Assembly: GCA_036925085.1 (NCBI GenBank)
Contig: JAUPFP010000004.1
Coordinates: 572,001 to 636,000 of the forward strand
Reading direction: 5' to 3'
Origin: Brachycybe producta
Taxonomy: Eukaryota; Arthropoda; Diplopoda; Playtdesmida; Andrognathidae
Length of the DNA stretch: 64,000 bases
The translations under genes were made by a program, and so were the position numbers. Below, piece by piece: positions 49,086 through 58,800 of this stretch; the first letter of the stretch is position 1, and every line of letters starts with the position of its first letter. Under the pieces are notes generated by a model. The model saw only the letters and a program-made list of their open reading frames with translations. It had not been told where the DNA came from and searched no databases.

Positions 49086-49516
49086 TTTCAATTAATATAT
49101 ATTTTAATTTTATAAAAAACGAAAAAAAAAACAGAAAGCAGAATTCAATATTCAATGGGGTTTATTTTAAACTCAACATAAATATAATAATAAAAGACAA
49201 TATTCACTGTTGTTTTCAGCATGTAACATGCTTAATAAACTTAATAATCTTTTATTTTTATTTAAAAAAAATGGACTAAAATATTTTACGAATAATAAAC
49301 ATGTAAATGGCAATTTTAAAATAAAATAATAAAAAATATTGTATAAATTGATATTTTCTTTGGATTTAAAACATTTTCTTTCTTCATATAAATACAATTT
49401 TAACAAAAAATAATATTCATGAGTATATTGTCATAAGAATGACCTGAAATTCAAACAAGAAATTAATTCATAAAACAATTAATTAGAATTTTTCTATTAT
49501 TATTTGTATTATATAC

Positions 49517-49572
49517 CTCTTCCAATGACAAAGGATTTGTTTTCAACCTCATGTTAAGATTCCTGAACCGAT
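49517..49572 (-). CDS. Candidate further exon of the calpain EF-hand domain
   Basis: The segment lies between a CCTAG acceptor and a GAAGAG|GTATAT donor. Read as 2 + 54 nt it encodes RFRNLNMRLKTNPLSLEE, which sits where classical calpains have RFDxDxSGxIxxxEL (EF-hand 3) but keeps none of the Ca2+-ligand pattern. Its phase does not join exon 14 directly: in phase 0 it meets TGA. A small 3n+1 exon would have to lie between, or this is not an exon. The remaining 3' end of the gene was not found. Confidence 0.3.
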
Positions 49573-49804
49573 CTAGGGATTTATTTAAGAATTAATACTC
49601 TTACTTATTACTTGATTAATCGAAAGTGAGCCTACCGTGAGCAATATATATCCGAACCATGGCTCTTAAAAATATGTCCGAAGTGAGGACAGAATGTTTA
49701 ACAAACCTCAAGACTAAACATTCTAAGACTTTATTGCTCACACTCACACCTGTTTAGAAAAAATACTATGTTTTAGATAAATACAAATGAATATTATTAT
49801 TTTA

Positions 49805-50118
49805 ATGTGGTTTTAAAGTGTAAACACCTCTCGAACTCTGTCAGGTACAAATTGAAGAGAAACTTGAATGTGTTTTAGAAACTAGAAAGGTAGCTCAGTC
49901 ATTCATATGTATTTTCATGTAAATAAACCAATCCGAAATTATCCAAATAAACTTTTAAAGTGAATTTAAAAATGACCTGACATTAAGCAGACAATATTTT
50001 TTTAATTTTTGACTATAACAAGTTTCCTTTAAAAGATATCAACCTGAAAATACTCTTCTAGTTTCTGCAGCACTTTCTAGTTTCTCACTTTATGTTCATA
50101 AACCACCTTAAATAAATG
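49805..50118. mobile_element. TIR family A copy within the 3' part of the calpain locus
   Basis: It starts near GTGGTTTTAAAGTGTAAACA, has GAAACTAGAAAGGTAGCTCA and the core GACCTGACATTAAGCAGACA, and ends GTTCATAAACCACCTTAA. It lies downstream of calpain exon 14 (50,296). Confidence 0.75.
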
Positions 50119-50295
50119 GAAATATTAAAATAGATAACAACCCGTTTCCCATAGTAATGATCGCAAATGATAACTGCTAACTCGACCCGAACTGCTTTGA
50201 TCAAACTTCAGAAAAGCAGACTAGAAAACAGAACGCACACAAAATAAAATATAAAAAATAATCATGATACTTTTGTGAATTTAATCTCAATATAC

Positions 50296-53200
50296 CTGCC
50301 ATAGATGAGCAGTTCTCATAAGTCCTGGAACATCACTCAAATTTACACGGCCACTTATGCAACTCTTGACAATAAATTTAAGGAGGAATTACTCTCGTAT
50401 AATTCATAAATTATATAAGAAATAGAAATCGTATATTAAAAGGATACATCTTTTAGCATTATTAATGCACGACAAAGTTCCAATGAAGGCTTTTCTGGTA
50501 ATGACAACAAAGCTAATTTGCATAGAAAAACAAAAAACATAATTATTATGCAAAGTAATTAATCCTTTAAATTGTTCTGATCAACAGTAAAATACTTTTC
50601 CAATAAAGTCGAAATATCTTTTGCAGTCTATTAGCATCGATTTCTGCAGGAAACTAGAAGAGATATTTAAAAAAATAATTAATATCGGATACTTTTTATG
50701 ATTAAGATGGTTTTTAAAGAGTAAACGTTCTTCGAACTTTGAATATTCATGTCCTTCAAGATTAACATTAAAAGTAACTTGAAAATGTTTTAAAAACTAG
50801 AATTGTAGCCCAAACACTTAAGATATCAACATGAAAATAGTATTAAGTGGTTCAACTACCGTTCTAGTTATTAAATCACATACAATTTTTCCATAGTGTT
50901 TTTTTTCTAAAACGTCAAAAAAAGACTTGGACAATCAGCTGTTCATAAAAGAGCTTAATAATTAATAAGTTACCTTTGAACTGCATTTTGCCAAAATAGC
51001 ACGTCCTTCACGCTAAACCAATTGTACAAATATATAACATATTTTAGAAATAATATGAAAAATGTAATTTACATGTAATTATAAACATACAAGCATACGA
51101 AAGTTGTCTTCACCATTATCAATTGGTATACTTTGCAACACCATGTTGTCGTCATTTACTTCCCTACAGAAAATTATACAATATTGTATTTATTAGATGT
51201 GGATTTACTTTAAAATAATTTTTTGAATAAATTTTCTTCACACAATCATTTTTTCTATTTTTTAAAAACTATTCATGTTTGTAATTATTTTTTTTCCAAA
51301 TAAATTACCATATGGTGCTTTGTTCATCTGTGTAGATTCTGAGCAAAAATTTTGTTTCACAATCTGGAACCTGAGTGCAAGGAATGACAACATAGTCTCC
51401 AGGTCTAAGAGTGAAGAAAGTGACCGTTTCACGAGAACTCGAATGATTTGTAACATCCAGAGGACTATTCTGCATCACAAAAGCCGCGTTCAACCTCGTG
51501 GCCGTATAAGGAACCTACATCCAAATTAAATAAACAATTTATCTCCGTAATTCTAACTAAAATATACTCTATTATTGCGACGAGTTACTTCGTAAACGGC
51601 AAAACCTATTGGATGTAGAGGATTGAGCCTTTTACGTTCAGTTGCACTGTTAGTAGGATCGTAATATTGCATCACCGACACAACCACATGACATTTTTGA
51701 GCTCCGTTCAAAGGAATTTGGACATGGAATTGAGGATTGGAAGTTACAGTGTCTAGAGATTTGTTTTGGAAAAAAAAACTATTGTTTATTAAAAAAAAAT
51801 TAATAATAATTATAATTTTAAAACATATTATACCGATGTGCCCTGGGCCACCTCCTGCATTATAACCCGAGCGCCAACGTCGCCTTGCAATAACTGCTCT
51901 CCATGGTTTTTTACCATGGAGTAGTGGTTCCGACATCCAGTCGTCTGGACCTACATGAACCACATCTAAATGCGTAAATTGCCGTACAAAATCATCAAAC
52001 GACATCCTAGAAAAATGTAATTTTCAAAAGAAGTATTAAATGATGACGGCTTGTATAAATTCTGACAAAAAAAATATACCAAAATTCATCATCATTTTTG
52101 GTTCGAGGTCTGTCCTGCTCTTTGATGCTGTCCCATTCCCACGATCTTTCGCTCCAAGGACCTGACCATTCGCCGCTCCCATTAGCCGTTCTTAACCTCA
52201 CCATTGGCATTTCACCTCCTCTTGTTCTAACCTAATTAGTTTGTAAATATTGAAAAAGAAAATTCATAAATTCATCCTTTATGTTTTGCAATGCAGTGTC
52301 CAAATTGCTTCACTCTTACCTACCCTGACCAATCCCATCACAGAGTAGGCTAAGCGAGTCATTAGGCCGTGACGTAAACGTAATTGCTTTTTACTGCCCT
52401 TTATTTAAACAGCAAAAAAAAAATCAATTCAAATTAATTAAACTTGATGAATGTTACTCCTGGATATAGTTGTTTATAGTTGGTATAGATGTTTTATGAA
52501 CAGCTAATTTTCGAACTCTTGGTTATTCTGCGTTTCAGAAACAACACGAAGAAATTCAAAGTCTGTTAAAAAACTAGAATGATAGCCAAGCCTCTTAATA
52601 GTATTTTCAAGTTAATATATTTTTTAAAAAAAGTTCGGTCATTTTCAAACGAACACAAAAACTTCATTTTAAAAAATTTCAACATGAAAATACCCTTAAG
52701 TGACTGAGCCTTAGTTTTTAAAAACATTTTTAAGTTTCTCTTGAAATTTTGTTCCTGAAATACAGAATAACCAGAGTTAGTGCTGCGTTTACACTTTGAA
52801 ACTATGATAAATTGTTATAAACTTACTGCATGTATGCTTGCAGCCAATATAGTTGCTCTTGGAAGAGCACTGCTCACCAATTGCAGAGTTAAATAGCGGT
52901 CCTGACTAGGAAGGTTGAAATTTTGAACAATACTACCAGTTAAATCCTGCAATGCCTGAGTAGTGGATCCAGATCCCAACTGCTCGTAATTACCATAAAA
53001 TCTACATCGAATTAAAAAAAAACATCATAAAAATTACGAATGCAATTTTCTTTTACAGTAAGAATGAATATAATTATTATATCATCACTTCGTTTTATTA
53101 CAAATCCGTTCACTTTTGAAACAAGTTAATTTGAATTTAATAAACTTGCTTCAAGGCAGATAAAAAAAATTGTTTAAGGTTATTTTTGTTATAATGTATA

Positions 53201-54451
53201 ATTTTTTAATGGCTCATATTTTAACGCAATAAATTGTGTACCACTGGCAACATGGGATGGGCAATGGAATGAGGCATTTACAGGGTACACTTGCAGCTAT
53301 TCAAATAAGGCCAATAACCTAAGTTAAGTGATATTACATATTAAACCTTGGTTTACAAGTTAAGAGTTGAGTAAAGAATTTCTTTGTCGAGGTCTTGCAG
53401 ATTATTATAATTCTTGTAGTACTTAGTAGAAGAGGGTTTTTTTTTTCGAAAGAAAAAAAAACAACAACATAGGTGGGACTTGTATTTTTTTATAAGGCAC
53501 ATCAGCACTATATTTCAGGTAGGTCTGCAAACTCAGGTAATAATTTATTTATTACGAGAGATTTTGATGTGAGATAGGTTCTATACGTTGTGAATATATT
53601 TTACTTTGCGTAGGCTTTCTCGAGGAGTGCTGGCCAAAATTCGGTTGGATCCATGGAATGTAATGTGATGAGACGTCCTGCGTGTGTGGGAAGACGATCG
53701 TCCACCACCACTTCAACCCACTCGCCAAAATGCCAAAAACGAAATCGAAAATGACCATTGTAATTGTTTAATTCAAAATCTTGATCTGATGGAACAACTC
53801 GTTCCAATAGTTTTTTCATCCGAATTAAGCAATTGAGAGCGAAAAGAAGCCACGAATCTCCTATTAAAATTATTCAAAAAAAAAAAAACAGGATTTGAAA
53901 ATTTCTATTCATTTTTAGGATTATACATTACAGTAATAACCATTTAACACGAAATGGAAGGGACTGGGATATGTTTTTGTGTTTTGTTAACGCAAAATTC
54001 GTATTAAAAGGAAATAATGTCATGCTATTTGAATTCGAATTTTTAAAATTATTTTGCAAGCATCCAAGAGGGCCTGTGGCAGAAGGAAAAAAGTCCAATT
54101 GCAGCATGCGACACATATTGTCAAAAATCTAAAGATATAAACCCAATAACAATTGCAATATATGAGTTCTGGTGCAGCTGAAATAATTGCATTTTTAAAA
54201 TAAAATCTTCTGCAAGAGAGAGAGAGAGAGAGAGAATCCCCTATTCCTAGGGACTAAACCGAAAATATATTTCGTGTTATTCGTTTTTTCGTGTTAAATG
54301 GTTTTATTCTTTTCATTTTCTTGGGTGTGTTAAGAATTATATTTGTATAAATAATTACCTAATTCTCCAAGTTCAAGGTTTGCTGTTGAAATATCCTCAC
54401 TTCGAAACCTGGGCCTTGGACAAATTTCCTATTAAATTATTTAAAGAAAAA

Positions 54452-54491
<40 letters not shown>

Positions 54492-55054
54492 CATATGGTT
54501 CACACACTTCAACCACATGGTGCCTCGAGAAATTTATAAATTCTGACCACTAAACAATTGTAGGTGGGCGATAGAAATAAATAAAAGCACCTTTTCGTAT
54601 ACGCCCATGAATTTTCACAACAAAAGTTAAAATATACTTTATGAAAATTGTTTTCTCTTCTTTTGATGTATGCAAACAAACAACCATTGGCCTATACAAG
54701 ACATAAATAGGTACATATTCCAGGCCTATTTATAAATTATTTAGTAGAATTGTAGGAAGATAAATTATAAAGTACAAGGTGTGTCAAATTAATGTGGTCG
54801 ACTACACTTACATGTGGCCTCATCCATGTAACTGGCCAAATTGAAGGCCTGTGTTTTCTGTATAAAGATCGGTCAGTTGCTGGAAAGTCCAGATCTTCAA
54901 ATAGTTCACTTGGATGTTGGTTGATGAGCCTACTTCTTAATGGAGTCCTTGTTGTACCCAAATTACGCGTGGAGTTATTGGAATTATGATGTACTCCATT
55001 GCTGGTGGAGCGCATTTGTCCAACAGCAGGAGCAGCACCTCTCAAATCTTGCAT
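50296..55054 (-). CDS. Calpain-family protein, catalytically dead (pseudoprotease), 14 exons, 3' end not resolved
   Basis: Exons in transcript order: 55054-54812, 54428-54359, 53860-53605, 53001-52827, 52398-52324, 52231-52080, 52006-51834, 51752-51568, 51514-51309, 51163-51091, 51012-50974, 50653-50596, 50512-50448, 50364-50296. All introns are GT-AG, all phases match, and the total is 1,839 nt (613 codons) with no stop. Domain order is that of a classical calpain: short N-terminal region; papain-like core, residues about 60-325 ([66 protein letters not shown]); C2-like domain III, about 326-535 ([30 protein letters not shown]); and the start of a penta-EF-hand domain ([24 protein letters not shown]). 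Catalytic positions read GDSW (Cys to Ser107), RLAY (GHAY in active calpains; His to Leu264) and RTANG (RNPWG in active calpains; Asn to Thr288). The oxyanion Gln is Leu101. Active calpains are Ca2+-dependent cytosolic cysteine proteases; this one should not cleave. Start: ATG at 55,054, but AG|GAATG just before it leaves open an upstream exon. Confidence 0.9.
50700..50966. mobile_element. TIR family A copy filling calpain intron 11
   Basis: It starts ATTAAGATGGTTTTTAAAGA, contains AACTAGAATTGTAGCCCAAA and ATATCAACATGAAAATAGTA, and ends CAGCTGTTCATAAAAGAGCTTAA. The host intron (50,654-50,973, 320 nt) is occupied almost end to end. Confidence 0.75.
52488..52800. mobile_element. TIR family A copy within calpain intron 4
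   Basis: It starts TTTTATGAACAGCTAATTTT with CGAACTCTTGGTTATTCTGC, has both inner arms, and ends near ACAGAATAACCAGAGTTAGT. It occupies most of the 428-nt intron 52,399-52,826. Confidence 0.75.
53938..54303. mobile_element. TIR element inside calpain intron 2
   Basis: The 17-bp perfect inverted ends are AACCATTTAACACGAAA at the left and its complement at the right. The 366-bp element occupies most of the 498-bp intron 53,861-54,358. It contains a block (54,048-54,205) that recurs at 16.2 kb and 25.8 kb, plus a GA microsatellite. No transposase frame is visible. Confidence 0.75.
54048..54205 (+). repeat. Interspersed repeat B, copy 2
   Basis: Same family as 16,163-16,306. This copy lies inside the TIR element of calpain intron 2 and is followed by a (GA)n run. 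Confidence 0.75.
54453..54488. repeat. (TA)n microsatellite in calpain intron 1
   Basis: About 17 TA units just upstream of calpain exon 2. Confidence 0.95.
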
Positions 55055-56082: not shown

Positions 56083-56105
56083 AATAAAAAATAAGAAAAA
56101 GTTAG
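56083..56105 (-). terminator. RNA polymerase III terminator of tRNA-Lys
   Basis: Just after the discriminator base the minus strand reads CTAACTTTTTCTTATTTTTT. The first T5 run lies within 10 nt of the tRNA end and is backed up by a T6 run. Confidence 0.8.
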
Positions 56106-56178
56106 CGCCCAACGTGGGGCTCGAACCCACGACCCTGAGATTAAGAGTCTCATGCTCTACCGACTGAGCTAGCCGGGC
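56106..56178 (-). tRNA. tRNA-Lys (anticodon CTT)
   Basis: The minus strand carries a complete 73-nt cloverleaf beginning GCCCGGCTAGCTCAGTCGG. The acceptor stem GCCCGGC pairs with GTTGGGC (one G-U). The anticodon arm TGAGA-CTCTTAA-TCTCA gives anticodon CTT, and the T arm is GTGGG-TTCGAGC-CCCAC. A-box and B-box promoter elements (TAGCTCAGTCGG, GGTTCGAGCCC) are intact. There is no intron and no encoded CCA, as expected in animals. It appears to be a functional eukaryotic tRNA-Lys gene. Confidence 0.97.
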
Positions 56179-57778: not shown

Positions 57779-58212
57779 TTATACTACACATTTCAAAAGC
57801 AATTACAAGGTAAAACTTAACTACGAATGTATAAATGAAAAAAAGTCCAAACATTTTTAAATATTATATATCTTGTATATTTTCTAAAACTTAAAATTAC
57901 ATTTTAACATAAATTTTAACATTTTTCTCAAAGTTTCAAATATGTTAATTATAATTATATTTTACAATTGTGCGTGTTTCAGACGTGAGCAGTGTCCAAA
58001 AAATTTAATTTAAAAGTTAAGATAATAAATATTAATCAATTCAAAAAATACAGAGATTTCAAGCTTCAGAAATAATATATTCTAATCCGGATTTGTGCAA
58101 TAAATGAGATGCCACTGATTATAAAAAACTTCAAACTTCAAAAGCAATTATAAGACAAAACTACAACGTAAAAAAGTACCAAATGTATTTAAATATTATA
58201 TGTATATATATG

Positions 58213-58307
<95 letters not shown>

Positions 58308-58346
58308 GTATATGTATATATATATACATATATATATATGTATATG

Positions 58347-58440
<94 letters not shown>

Positions 58441-58451
58441 TAATACATATA

Positions 58452-58519
<68 letters not shown>

Positions 58520-58800
58520 GTACATATATATATTAAGTTAAAACTTAAAATGCATTTTAACATTTTGTTTGTCATTTAGTTTTTCTCTTTCATATTATGT
58601 CAAAGTTTCAAATATGTTAATTATAATTACTGTACATATTTTGCAATTGTGCGTGTTTAAGACTTGAACAATTCAAAACATTATAATTTCAAAGTAATGA
58701 TAATAAATATTCATCTATTCTAAAAATAAAAGAGATTTCAAGCTTCAGAATATATATTTTCTAATCCGGATTTTTGGCAATGAATGAGATGCCATTGAGT
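57772..58800 (+). repeat. Tandem duplication of a 340-bp unit, second copy expanded by a TA tract
   Basis: CCACTGATTATA recurs 340 bp apart (57,772 and 58,112), followed in both by CTTCAAAAGCAATTA-like and AATATTATAT words. TTTCAAATATGTTAATTATA, GCAATTGTGCGTGTTT-like and CTAATCCGGATTT recur after the TA tract. The second unit carries the 337-bp TA expansion. Confidence 0.75.
58197..58533. repeat. Long (TA)n / (TATG)n microsatellite
   Basis: About 337 bp of almost pure TA with scattered TG/CA steps. It is self-complementary throughout, so it can form cruciforms. Confidence 0.98.

What the first reader, a model, noticed from the sequence alone, without database searches (positions are those of the whole stretch)
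52080..53860. Calpain with all three catalytic residues replaced (Cys to Ser, His to Leu, Asn to Thr)
At the three diagnostic calpain motifs the translated exons read LGDSW (LGDCW expected), [10 protein letters not shown] (GLVKGHAYSV expected) and RLRTANG (RIRNPWG expected). The spacing between the sites is 157 and 24 residues, equal to Cys105, His262 and Asn286 of human m-calpain, so the alignment is secure. The Ser codon is TCG, two changes from TGT or TGC, so a single base error cannot explain it. Mammalian CAPN6 is a known calpain with a substituted catalytic Cys, but loss of the whole triad by these residues in a classical domain layout is unusual and may be undescribed.
Basis: partly seen in the sequence, partly recalled or inferred. 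Interest (0 to 1): 0.92.

Follow-up and report, generated by a model that had tools for sequence, protein, structure and literature searches.

The report
Protease-dead calpain gene of a myriapod
This is an intact gene, most likely of a millipede, for a calpain-shaped protein that has lost the residues needed to cut proteins; it belongs to a calpain branch shared across arthropods in which the cutting residues changed several times, which suggests a job other than cutting.

Summary
The locus is a complete 18-exon gene (49417-55054, minus strand; 697 aa), introns GT-AG, no early stop. The catalytic sites read Ser107, Leu264, Thr288 at calpain spacing (157, 24); the oxyanion Gln and the Trp after Asn are lost too. 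Two relatives, one from the millipede Chamberlinius, read T-L-A and T-L-T, so error is very unlikely. No motif-restoring exon was found in the window. The predicted structure of relative P0001 has the whole calpain fold, PEF included. The gene belongs to an arthropod branch: of 120 rows with all three sites readable, 115 lack Cys, 25 lack the whole triad, 4 keep Cys-His-Asn. The tree needs at least 6 changes of Cys state and 5 of full-loss state. So "undescribed" is only partly right: inactive calpains (Drosophila CalpC, a Daphnia protein, CAPN6) are in print. Among the three millipede-type proteins C2-like and PEF domains are better conserved than the core, unlike active vertebrate calpains; but against other arthropods PEF is the least conserved. 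Best reading: a folded, non-cutting binding protein; partner unknown, function inferred.

The parts
49417..55054 (-). whole coding span of the pseudocalpain gene, 18 coding exons, 697 codons plus stop
   Evidence: GT-AG introns, consistent phases, one terminal stop; 496 of 693 aligned residues identical to P0001, 475 of 688 to P0002
54812..55054 (-). exon 1, N-terminal region and start of PC1
   Evidence: ATG matches the starts of P0001 (MQD) and P0002 (MPD)
54359..54428 (-). exon 2, PC1 up to ..LELGELG; oxyanion Gln replaced by Leu101, CBS1 Asp replaced by Asn98
53605..53860 (-). exon 3, PC1 with GDSW: catalytic Cys replaced by Ser107 (TCG, 53855-53853); CBS1 Glu178 kept
52827..53001 (-). exon 4, protease core between the Cys and His sites
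52324..52398 (-). exon 5, PC2 with [10 protein letters not shown]: catalytic His replaced by Leu264 (TTA, 52353-52351); His258 (52371-52369) in place of the branch's usual Asn
52080..52231 (-). exon 6, PC2 with RLRTANG: catalytic Asn replaced by Thr288 (ACG, 52189-52187), Trp by Asn290; CBS2 acids E294, E301, D320, E322 present
51834..52006 (-). exon 7, end of PC2 and start of C2-like domain
51589..51752 (-). exon 8, C2-like domain
51309..51514 (-). exon 9, C2-like domain
51091..51163 (-). exon 10, linker
50974..51012 (-). exon 11, start of PEF domain
50596..50653 (-). exon 12, PEF domain
50448..50512 (-). exon 13, PEF domain, ends with Asp583, first residue (X) of the EF2 loop
50296..50364 (-). 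[not shown]
50142..50220 (-). [not shown]
49636..49749 (-). exon 16, PEF domain, C-terminal half
49517..49572 (-). exon 17, PEF domain, C-terminal half
49417..49443 (-). exon 18, last residues VILMTIYS and stop
   Evidence: same ending as P0002, with small changes in the other members printed

Best explanation
The locus is an intact gene for a pseudocalpain: a folded classical calpain (PC1-PC2, C2-like, PEF) that cannot cut, because nucleophile, base, third triad residue, oxyanion Gln and the neighbouring Trp are replaced. It is the myriapod (most likely millipede) copy of an arthropod calpain branch in which the catalytic residues changed repeatedly; the confidence figure is for this core. 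Two EF loops have altered ligands, so Ca2+ control there is doubtful; the acidic CBS2 site in PC2 is kept and could still bind Ca2+. Shown: gene structure, substitutions, predicted fold of the relative P0001, branch membership, conservation figures. Inferred: lack of activity, selection, binding role, partner.
Against: No activity, binding or expression data. No nucleotide relatives, so no dN/dS; selection is inferred from protein conservation. The conservation shift rests on three rows of one lineage: against Strigamia, Nymphon, Scylla and Ornithodoros the window's PEF is the least conserved domain (0.48, 0.44, 0.57, 0.47, against 0.54-0.62 for the core), and spiders (10 pairs) and one tick pair show the usual order, core first. 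Of 168 columns at least 95% invariant in 43 active outgroup sequences, 55 are changed in all three millipede-type proteins, not concentrated near the triad (11 of 30 within 8 residues, 44 of 138 elsewhere, p 0.67). PMC7912814 (passage) says triad substitutions do not always abolish activity. No partner identified. In PMC2912385 the calpain 8 C105S mice remained prone to gastric injury, so a dead partner was not enough there. Absence of a Pfam EF-hand match is weak evidence: several vertebrate calpains are listed without one too.
Confidence: 0.9

Rival explanations
1. On mechanism: a cytoskeletal or membrane scaffold that acts alone, without pairing to an active calpain, as reported for CAPN6 (microtubule stability).
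For: C2-like domain mean identity 0.78 among the three, above the core, and the best conserved domain of the window also against Strigamia, Nymphon, Scylla and Ornithodoros (0.59-0.69). [quoted passage not shown] T. brucei calpains are described as mainly microtubule-stabilising (PMC7912814, passage).
Against: Among the three millipede-type proteins PEF is as conserved as the C2-like domain (0.79), which this reading does not explain.
Confidence: 0.3
2. On mechanism: a dominant-negative inhibitor, the arthropod stand-in for calpastatin, which occupies substrates or the PEF of active calpains and limits their cutting.
For: PMC3157467 reports speculation that Drosophila CalpC is the equivalent of calpastatin (passage); [quoted passage not shown]
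Against: No sequence evidence for substrate binding in the altered cleft; the core is the least conserved of the three domains within the millipede-type trio.
Confidence: 0.2
3. A decaying gene on its way to becoming a pseudogene.
For: Core less conserved than the other domains within the trio; residues at the triad scattered across the branch.
Against: Complete ORF with 17 in-phase GT-AG introns and about 70% identity over nearly full length to two relatives; coding GC 0.424 against 0.259 in introns; many full-length proteins across arthropods.
Confidence: 0.03
4. Still an enzyme, with Ser107 as nucleophile and a moved base such as His258.
For: Ser/Thr at the nucleophile in all three millipede-type rows; His258 in 8 of 21 full-loss rows, in 4 of 5 full-loss lineages, and in 0 of 95 other readable rows. 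PMC7912814 (passage) says triad substitutions do not always abolish activity.
Against: Oxyanion Gln and Trp replaced; other full-loss rows have Pro, Ala, Gly, Ile or Glu at the nucleophile; the independent-pairs test for His258 is not significant (p 0.125-0.25).
Confidence: 0.02

Closest known systems
Arthropod proteins annotated calpain-9-like, calpain-11-like and similar (for example P0002 Chamberlinius, P0003 Scylla, P0051 Daphnia carinata, P0113 Condylostylus)
   Same: Same gene branch and layout; catalytic Cys lost in 115 of 120 readable rows.
   Different: 66 of 120 readable rows have lost Cys only; the millipede-type rows lost all three plus the oxyanion Gln.
'Classical calpain family C' (Drosophila CalpC, Daphnia, Branchiostoma, lophotrochozoan members), PMC5650170
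   Same: Inactive ecdysozoan PEF calpains; a Daphnia protein (D. carinata, P0051) sits in the branch found here.
   Different: That family has bootstrap 36 in the paper. Drosophila CalpC was not among the rows listed or 34 (each cut at 120), so identity of the two groups is unproven; [quoted passage not shown]
Mammalian CAPN6
   Same: Natural calpain with substituted catalytic Cys (Lys in humans; PMC3731218, abstract in listing) and a non-proteolytic role.
   Different: Described as atypical in PMC3315469; it ends in a C2 domain, not PEF (recalled).
Calpain 8/9 complex (G-calpain), PMC2912385
   Same: PEF calpains in a mixed complex in which a Cys-to-Ser subunit still forms a stable complex with an active one.
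   Different: Both natural subunits are active enzymes; the dead form is engineered.

Membership tests
Classical (PEF) calpain, by descent | CysPc protease core | tested here: met
   PF00648 residues 52-340, E 1.2e-88
Classical (PEF) calpain, by descent | C2-like / CBSW domain | tested here: met
   PF01067 residues 365-497, E 3.9e-28
Classical (PEF) calpain, by descent | C-terminal penta-EF-hand fold | tested here: met
   [not shown]
Classical (PEF) calpain, by descent | Ca2+-binding EF loops | tested here: inconclusive
   No EF-hand Pfam match in 7 branch members scanned at E up to 5, but the outgroup P0164 and several vertebrate rows lack one too. Only EF2 and EF3 were looked at: window EF2 Y is Cys and -Z Asp, EF3 Y is Ser and -Z His (loop positions recalled). 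EF2 Y is gapped in 93 of 141 branch rows.
Active C2 peptidase (enzyme) | Cys-His-Asn triad | tested here: not met
   Ser107, Leu264, Thr288
Active C2 peptidase (enzyme) | Ca2+-dependent proteolysis | not testable with these tools
   needs purified protein
Arthropod calpain-9-like branch | Groups with arthropod members apart from active outgroups | tested here: met
   100/100 for 62 branch rows against 8 outgroup rows; window with P0001 and P0002 100/100. The outgroup held one row known to be arthropod, P0164 (named calpain-A-like, Eriocheir), and no insect CalpA/CalpB; long outgroup branches were flagged.
Classical family C (CalpC-like) | Groups with Drosophila CalpC | not tested
   CalpC sequence not obtained; not among the rows listed
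CAPN5/CAPN6 type | C-terminal C2 domain instead of PEF | tested here: not met
   C-terminal domain of P0001 matches PEF structures; the defining feature is recalled

The most novel reading that the evidence does not exclude
Arthropods carry an ancient calpain branch whose job was never mainly cutting: EF-hand Ca2+ binding was weakened first, then the Cys was lost several times independently, and in millipedes the whole active site, after which their C2-like and PEF domains came under the strongest constraint. It would be a Ca2+-independent PEF partner that does for arthropod calpains what the small subunit or calpastatin does in vertebrates, overlooked because no Drosophila member was recognised.
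Probability: 0.2. Interest if true: 0.7.

Novelty: new member of a known kind. Interest (0 to 1): 0.45.

Why it matters
Dead enzymes that are kept show what an enzyme's fold does besides catalysis. Here one arthropod branch holds rows with an intact triad (sea spider, soft tick, centipede, an amphipod), rows that lost only Cys, and rows that lost everything. That makes it a natural series for asking which calpain functions need cutting and which need only binding.

Tried and rejected
Sequencing or assembly error: rejected, since two relatives lack Cys, His and Asn at the same three columns and at least 7 base changes would be needed. Alternative exons restoring the motifs: none in six frames with loose patterns; a motif split by an intron would be missed. 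Second calpain in the window: none by tblastn with five calpains. Substitutions clustered at the active site: not so (p 0.67). His258 as replacement base: in a scan of window residues 50-697 it was the only residue found in 4 full-loss lineages and in at most 3 other rows, but it was found after the fact and is not significant on the tree. Other genes in the window: ten of the longer ORFs gave no Pfam match above cut-off, two gave weak ones below it; the rest were not scanned. Placing Drosophila CalpC: not possible, its sequence was not obtained; insect CalpA/CalpB also not sampled. Genome-wide paralogues: the genome search did not complete. dN/dS: no nucleotide relatives. The quick and careful trees place Nymphon, chelicerates and myriapods differently, and support for centipede plus millipede-type rows is 84 SH-aLRT and 97/40, so deep order is open; the 70 rows of these trees were picked by hand from 186. 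Rows with a gap at any triad column (21 of 141) were dropped before the counts; rows are protein clusters, some of them isoforms of one species, and in Lepidoptera the alignment near the triad is insecure. Rows P0186-P0194 were not added. The literature was searched; none of the listings showed a paper on this arthropod branch as such, but only open-licence papers are held, most were seen only as title and start of abstract, and passages were read in eight; supplements were not read.

Full report
What is there. On the minus strand at 49417-55054 lies a complete gene of 18 coding exons and 697 codons. All 17 introns are GT..AG, phases agree, and there is one stop, at the end. Start and end match those of two relatives, P0001 and P0002; identity is 496 of 693 and 475 of 688 aligned residues. 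Coding GC is 0.424 against 0.259 in introns.

The substitutions. Ser107, Leu264 and Thr288 stand where human CAPN1 has Cys115, His272 and Asn296. The nearest codons for the expected residues are 2, 3 and 2 base changes away. CAPN1 Gln109 (oxyanion) is Leu101 and Trp298 is Asn290. Of the Ca2+ sites of the core (residue roles recalled), CBS1 has lost Gly101 and Asp106 but keeps Glu185; CBS2 keeps four acids (E294, E301, D320, E322; E301 stands for an Asp). No six-frame match to loose GDCW, GHAY or NPWG patterns exists in the window, and tblastn with five calpains hits only this locus.

Whose gene. The best matches are P0001 (67% in the search, from an unnamed 3,263-base contig) and P0002 from the millipede Chamberlinius hualienensis (68%). 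The three group at 100/100. The centipede Strigamia is next, at 84 SH-aLRT in the quick tree and 97/40 in the careful one. The window is therefore myriapod, most likely millipede.

The branch. Three protein searches (the best 120 rows listed each) return one arthropod set: sea spider, horseshoe crab, spiders, ticks, mites, myriapods, crustaceans, springtails and insects; searches list vertebrate calpains as well, at lower identity. In a careful tree of 70 hand-picked rows with the triad columns left out, 62 branch rows separate at 100/100 from 8 active outgroup rows; a FastTree of 171 rows agrees on the branch, though there Nymphon is joined to it with weak support. Of 141 branch rows, 120 have all three triad columns filled: 66 lost Cys only, 25 lost all three, 15 lost Cys and His, 9 lost Cys and Asn, 4 keep C-H-N (Hyalella, Ornithodoros, Strigamia, Nymphon) and 1 is C-Q-N. 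The fewest changes on the tree are 6 for Cys/non-Cys, 11 for His, 7 for Asn and 5 for full loss; such counts do not tell loss from gain, and Hyalella, nested among Cys-less crustaceans, may be a reversal. The full-loss rows fall in millipede-type myriapods (3), Lepidoptera (18), springtails (2), an ostracod (1) and the beetle Callosobruchus (1).

Where the constraint lies. Mean pairwise identity in the three millipede-type proteins is 0.68 for the core, 0.78 for the C2-like domain and 0.79 for PEF. In 307 active vertebrate pairs of 0.6-0.8 overall identity it is 0.75, 0.67, 0.55; in 313 Cys-less arthropod pairs with His and Asn kept 0.76, 0.79, 0.72; in 128 lepidopteran pairs 0.67, 0.70, 0.64; in 10 spider pairs 0.86, 0.82, 0.77; in one tick pair 0.89, 0.87, 0.82. 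Columns identical in all three number 167 of 289 in the core and 251 of 357 in the rest (p 0.0012 if columns were independent). Against a clean story: the window's PEF compared with Strigamia, Nymphon, Scylla and Ornithodoros is the least conserved domain (0.48, 0.44, 0.57, 0.47), so PEF first diverged and is conserved only within the millipede-type rows; and changes at otherwise invariant columns are not clustered at the triad.

How it most likely works. That it cannot cut follows from the loss of nucleophile, base, third residue and oxyanion Gln; it was not measured, and PMC7912814 (passage) warns that triad substitutions do not always abolish activity. That it is kept for something follows from its conservation. 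The likeliest something is binding through C2-like and PEF domains, perhaps to an active calpain. Calpain 8 with Cys105 changed to Ser still forms a stable complex containing active calpain 9 (PMC2912385, passages), which shows that a dead PEF calpain can be a structural partner, though it did not protect those mice.

What is known. [quoted passage not shown] PMC5650170 (passages) has a Classical family C with inactive Drosophila and Daphnia members, bootstrap 36. PMC3441222 (passages) calls CalpC an inactive protease. PMC4326573 (passages) calls CalpC a recent duplication. That CalpC has all three residues replaced is recalled, not checked. The window gene is therefore a new member of a known kind, pseudocalpains, in an extreme state; the arthropod-wide extent and repeated change are the fresh part, as far as the ten searches named under Tried and rejected show.

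Noticed in passing
window 52369-52371 (residue 258) and branch alignment: Asn258, the usual residue of the branch, is His in 8 of the 116 rows with a readable triad and a residue there; all 8 have lost the whole triad, in 4 of 5 such lineages. Not significant on the tree (p 0.125-0.25).
   Followed up: yes
P0036 (Hyalella) beside P0049 (Trinorchestia): An amphipod row with C-H-N sits next to one with S-H-N inside Cys-less crustaceans; its oxyanion Gln is Arg, so this may be a reversal of the Cys without activity.
   Followed up: partly
Lower Diptera and a flea are listed with P-H-S, but I saw no Drosophila or other higher fly and no bee, wasp or ant among the named rows, which suggests loss or strong divergence there; lists were cut at 120 rows and some rows have no name.
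   Followed up: no
window 20.8-21.8 kb, 39.0-40.7 kb, 44.7 kb, 48.3-50.1 kb, 50.8-50.9 kb, 52.5-52.8 kb: An interspersed repeat family, pieces of about 60 to 330 aligned bases and roughly 67-84% identical, in both orientations; copies lie in three introns of this gene.
   Followed up: partly
window 56105-56178, minus strand: tRNA-Lys (anticodon CTT) about 1 kb upstream of the calpain coding start.
   Followed up: no
window 58200-58540: Long AT-rich dinucleotide tract, flanked by a direct repeat of about 200 bases at 57928-58118 and 58600-58798, 83.5% identical.
   Followed up: no
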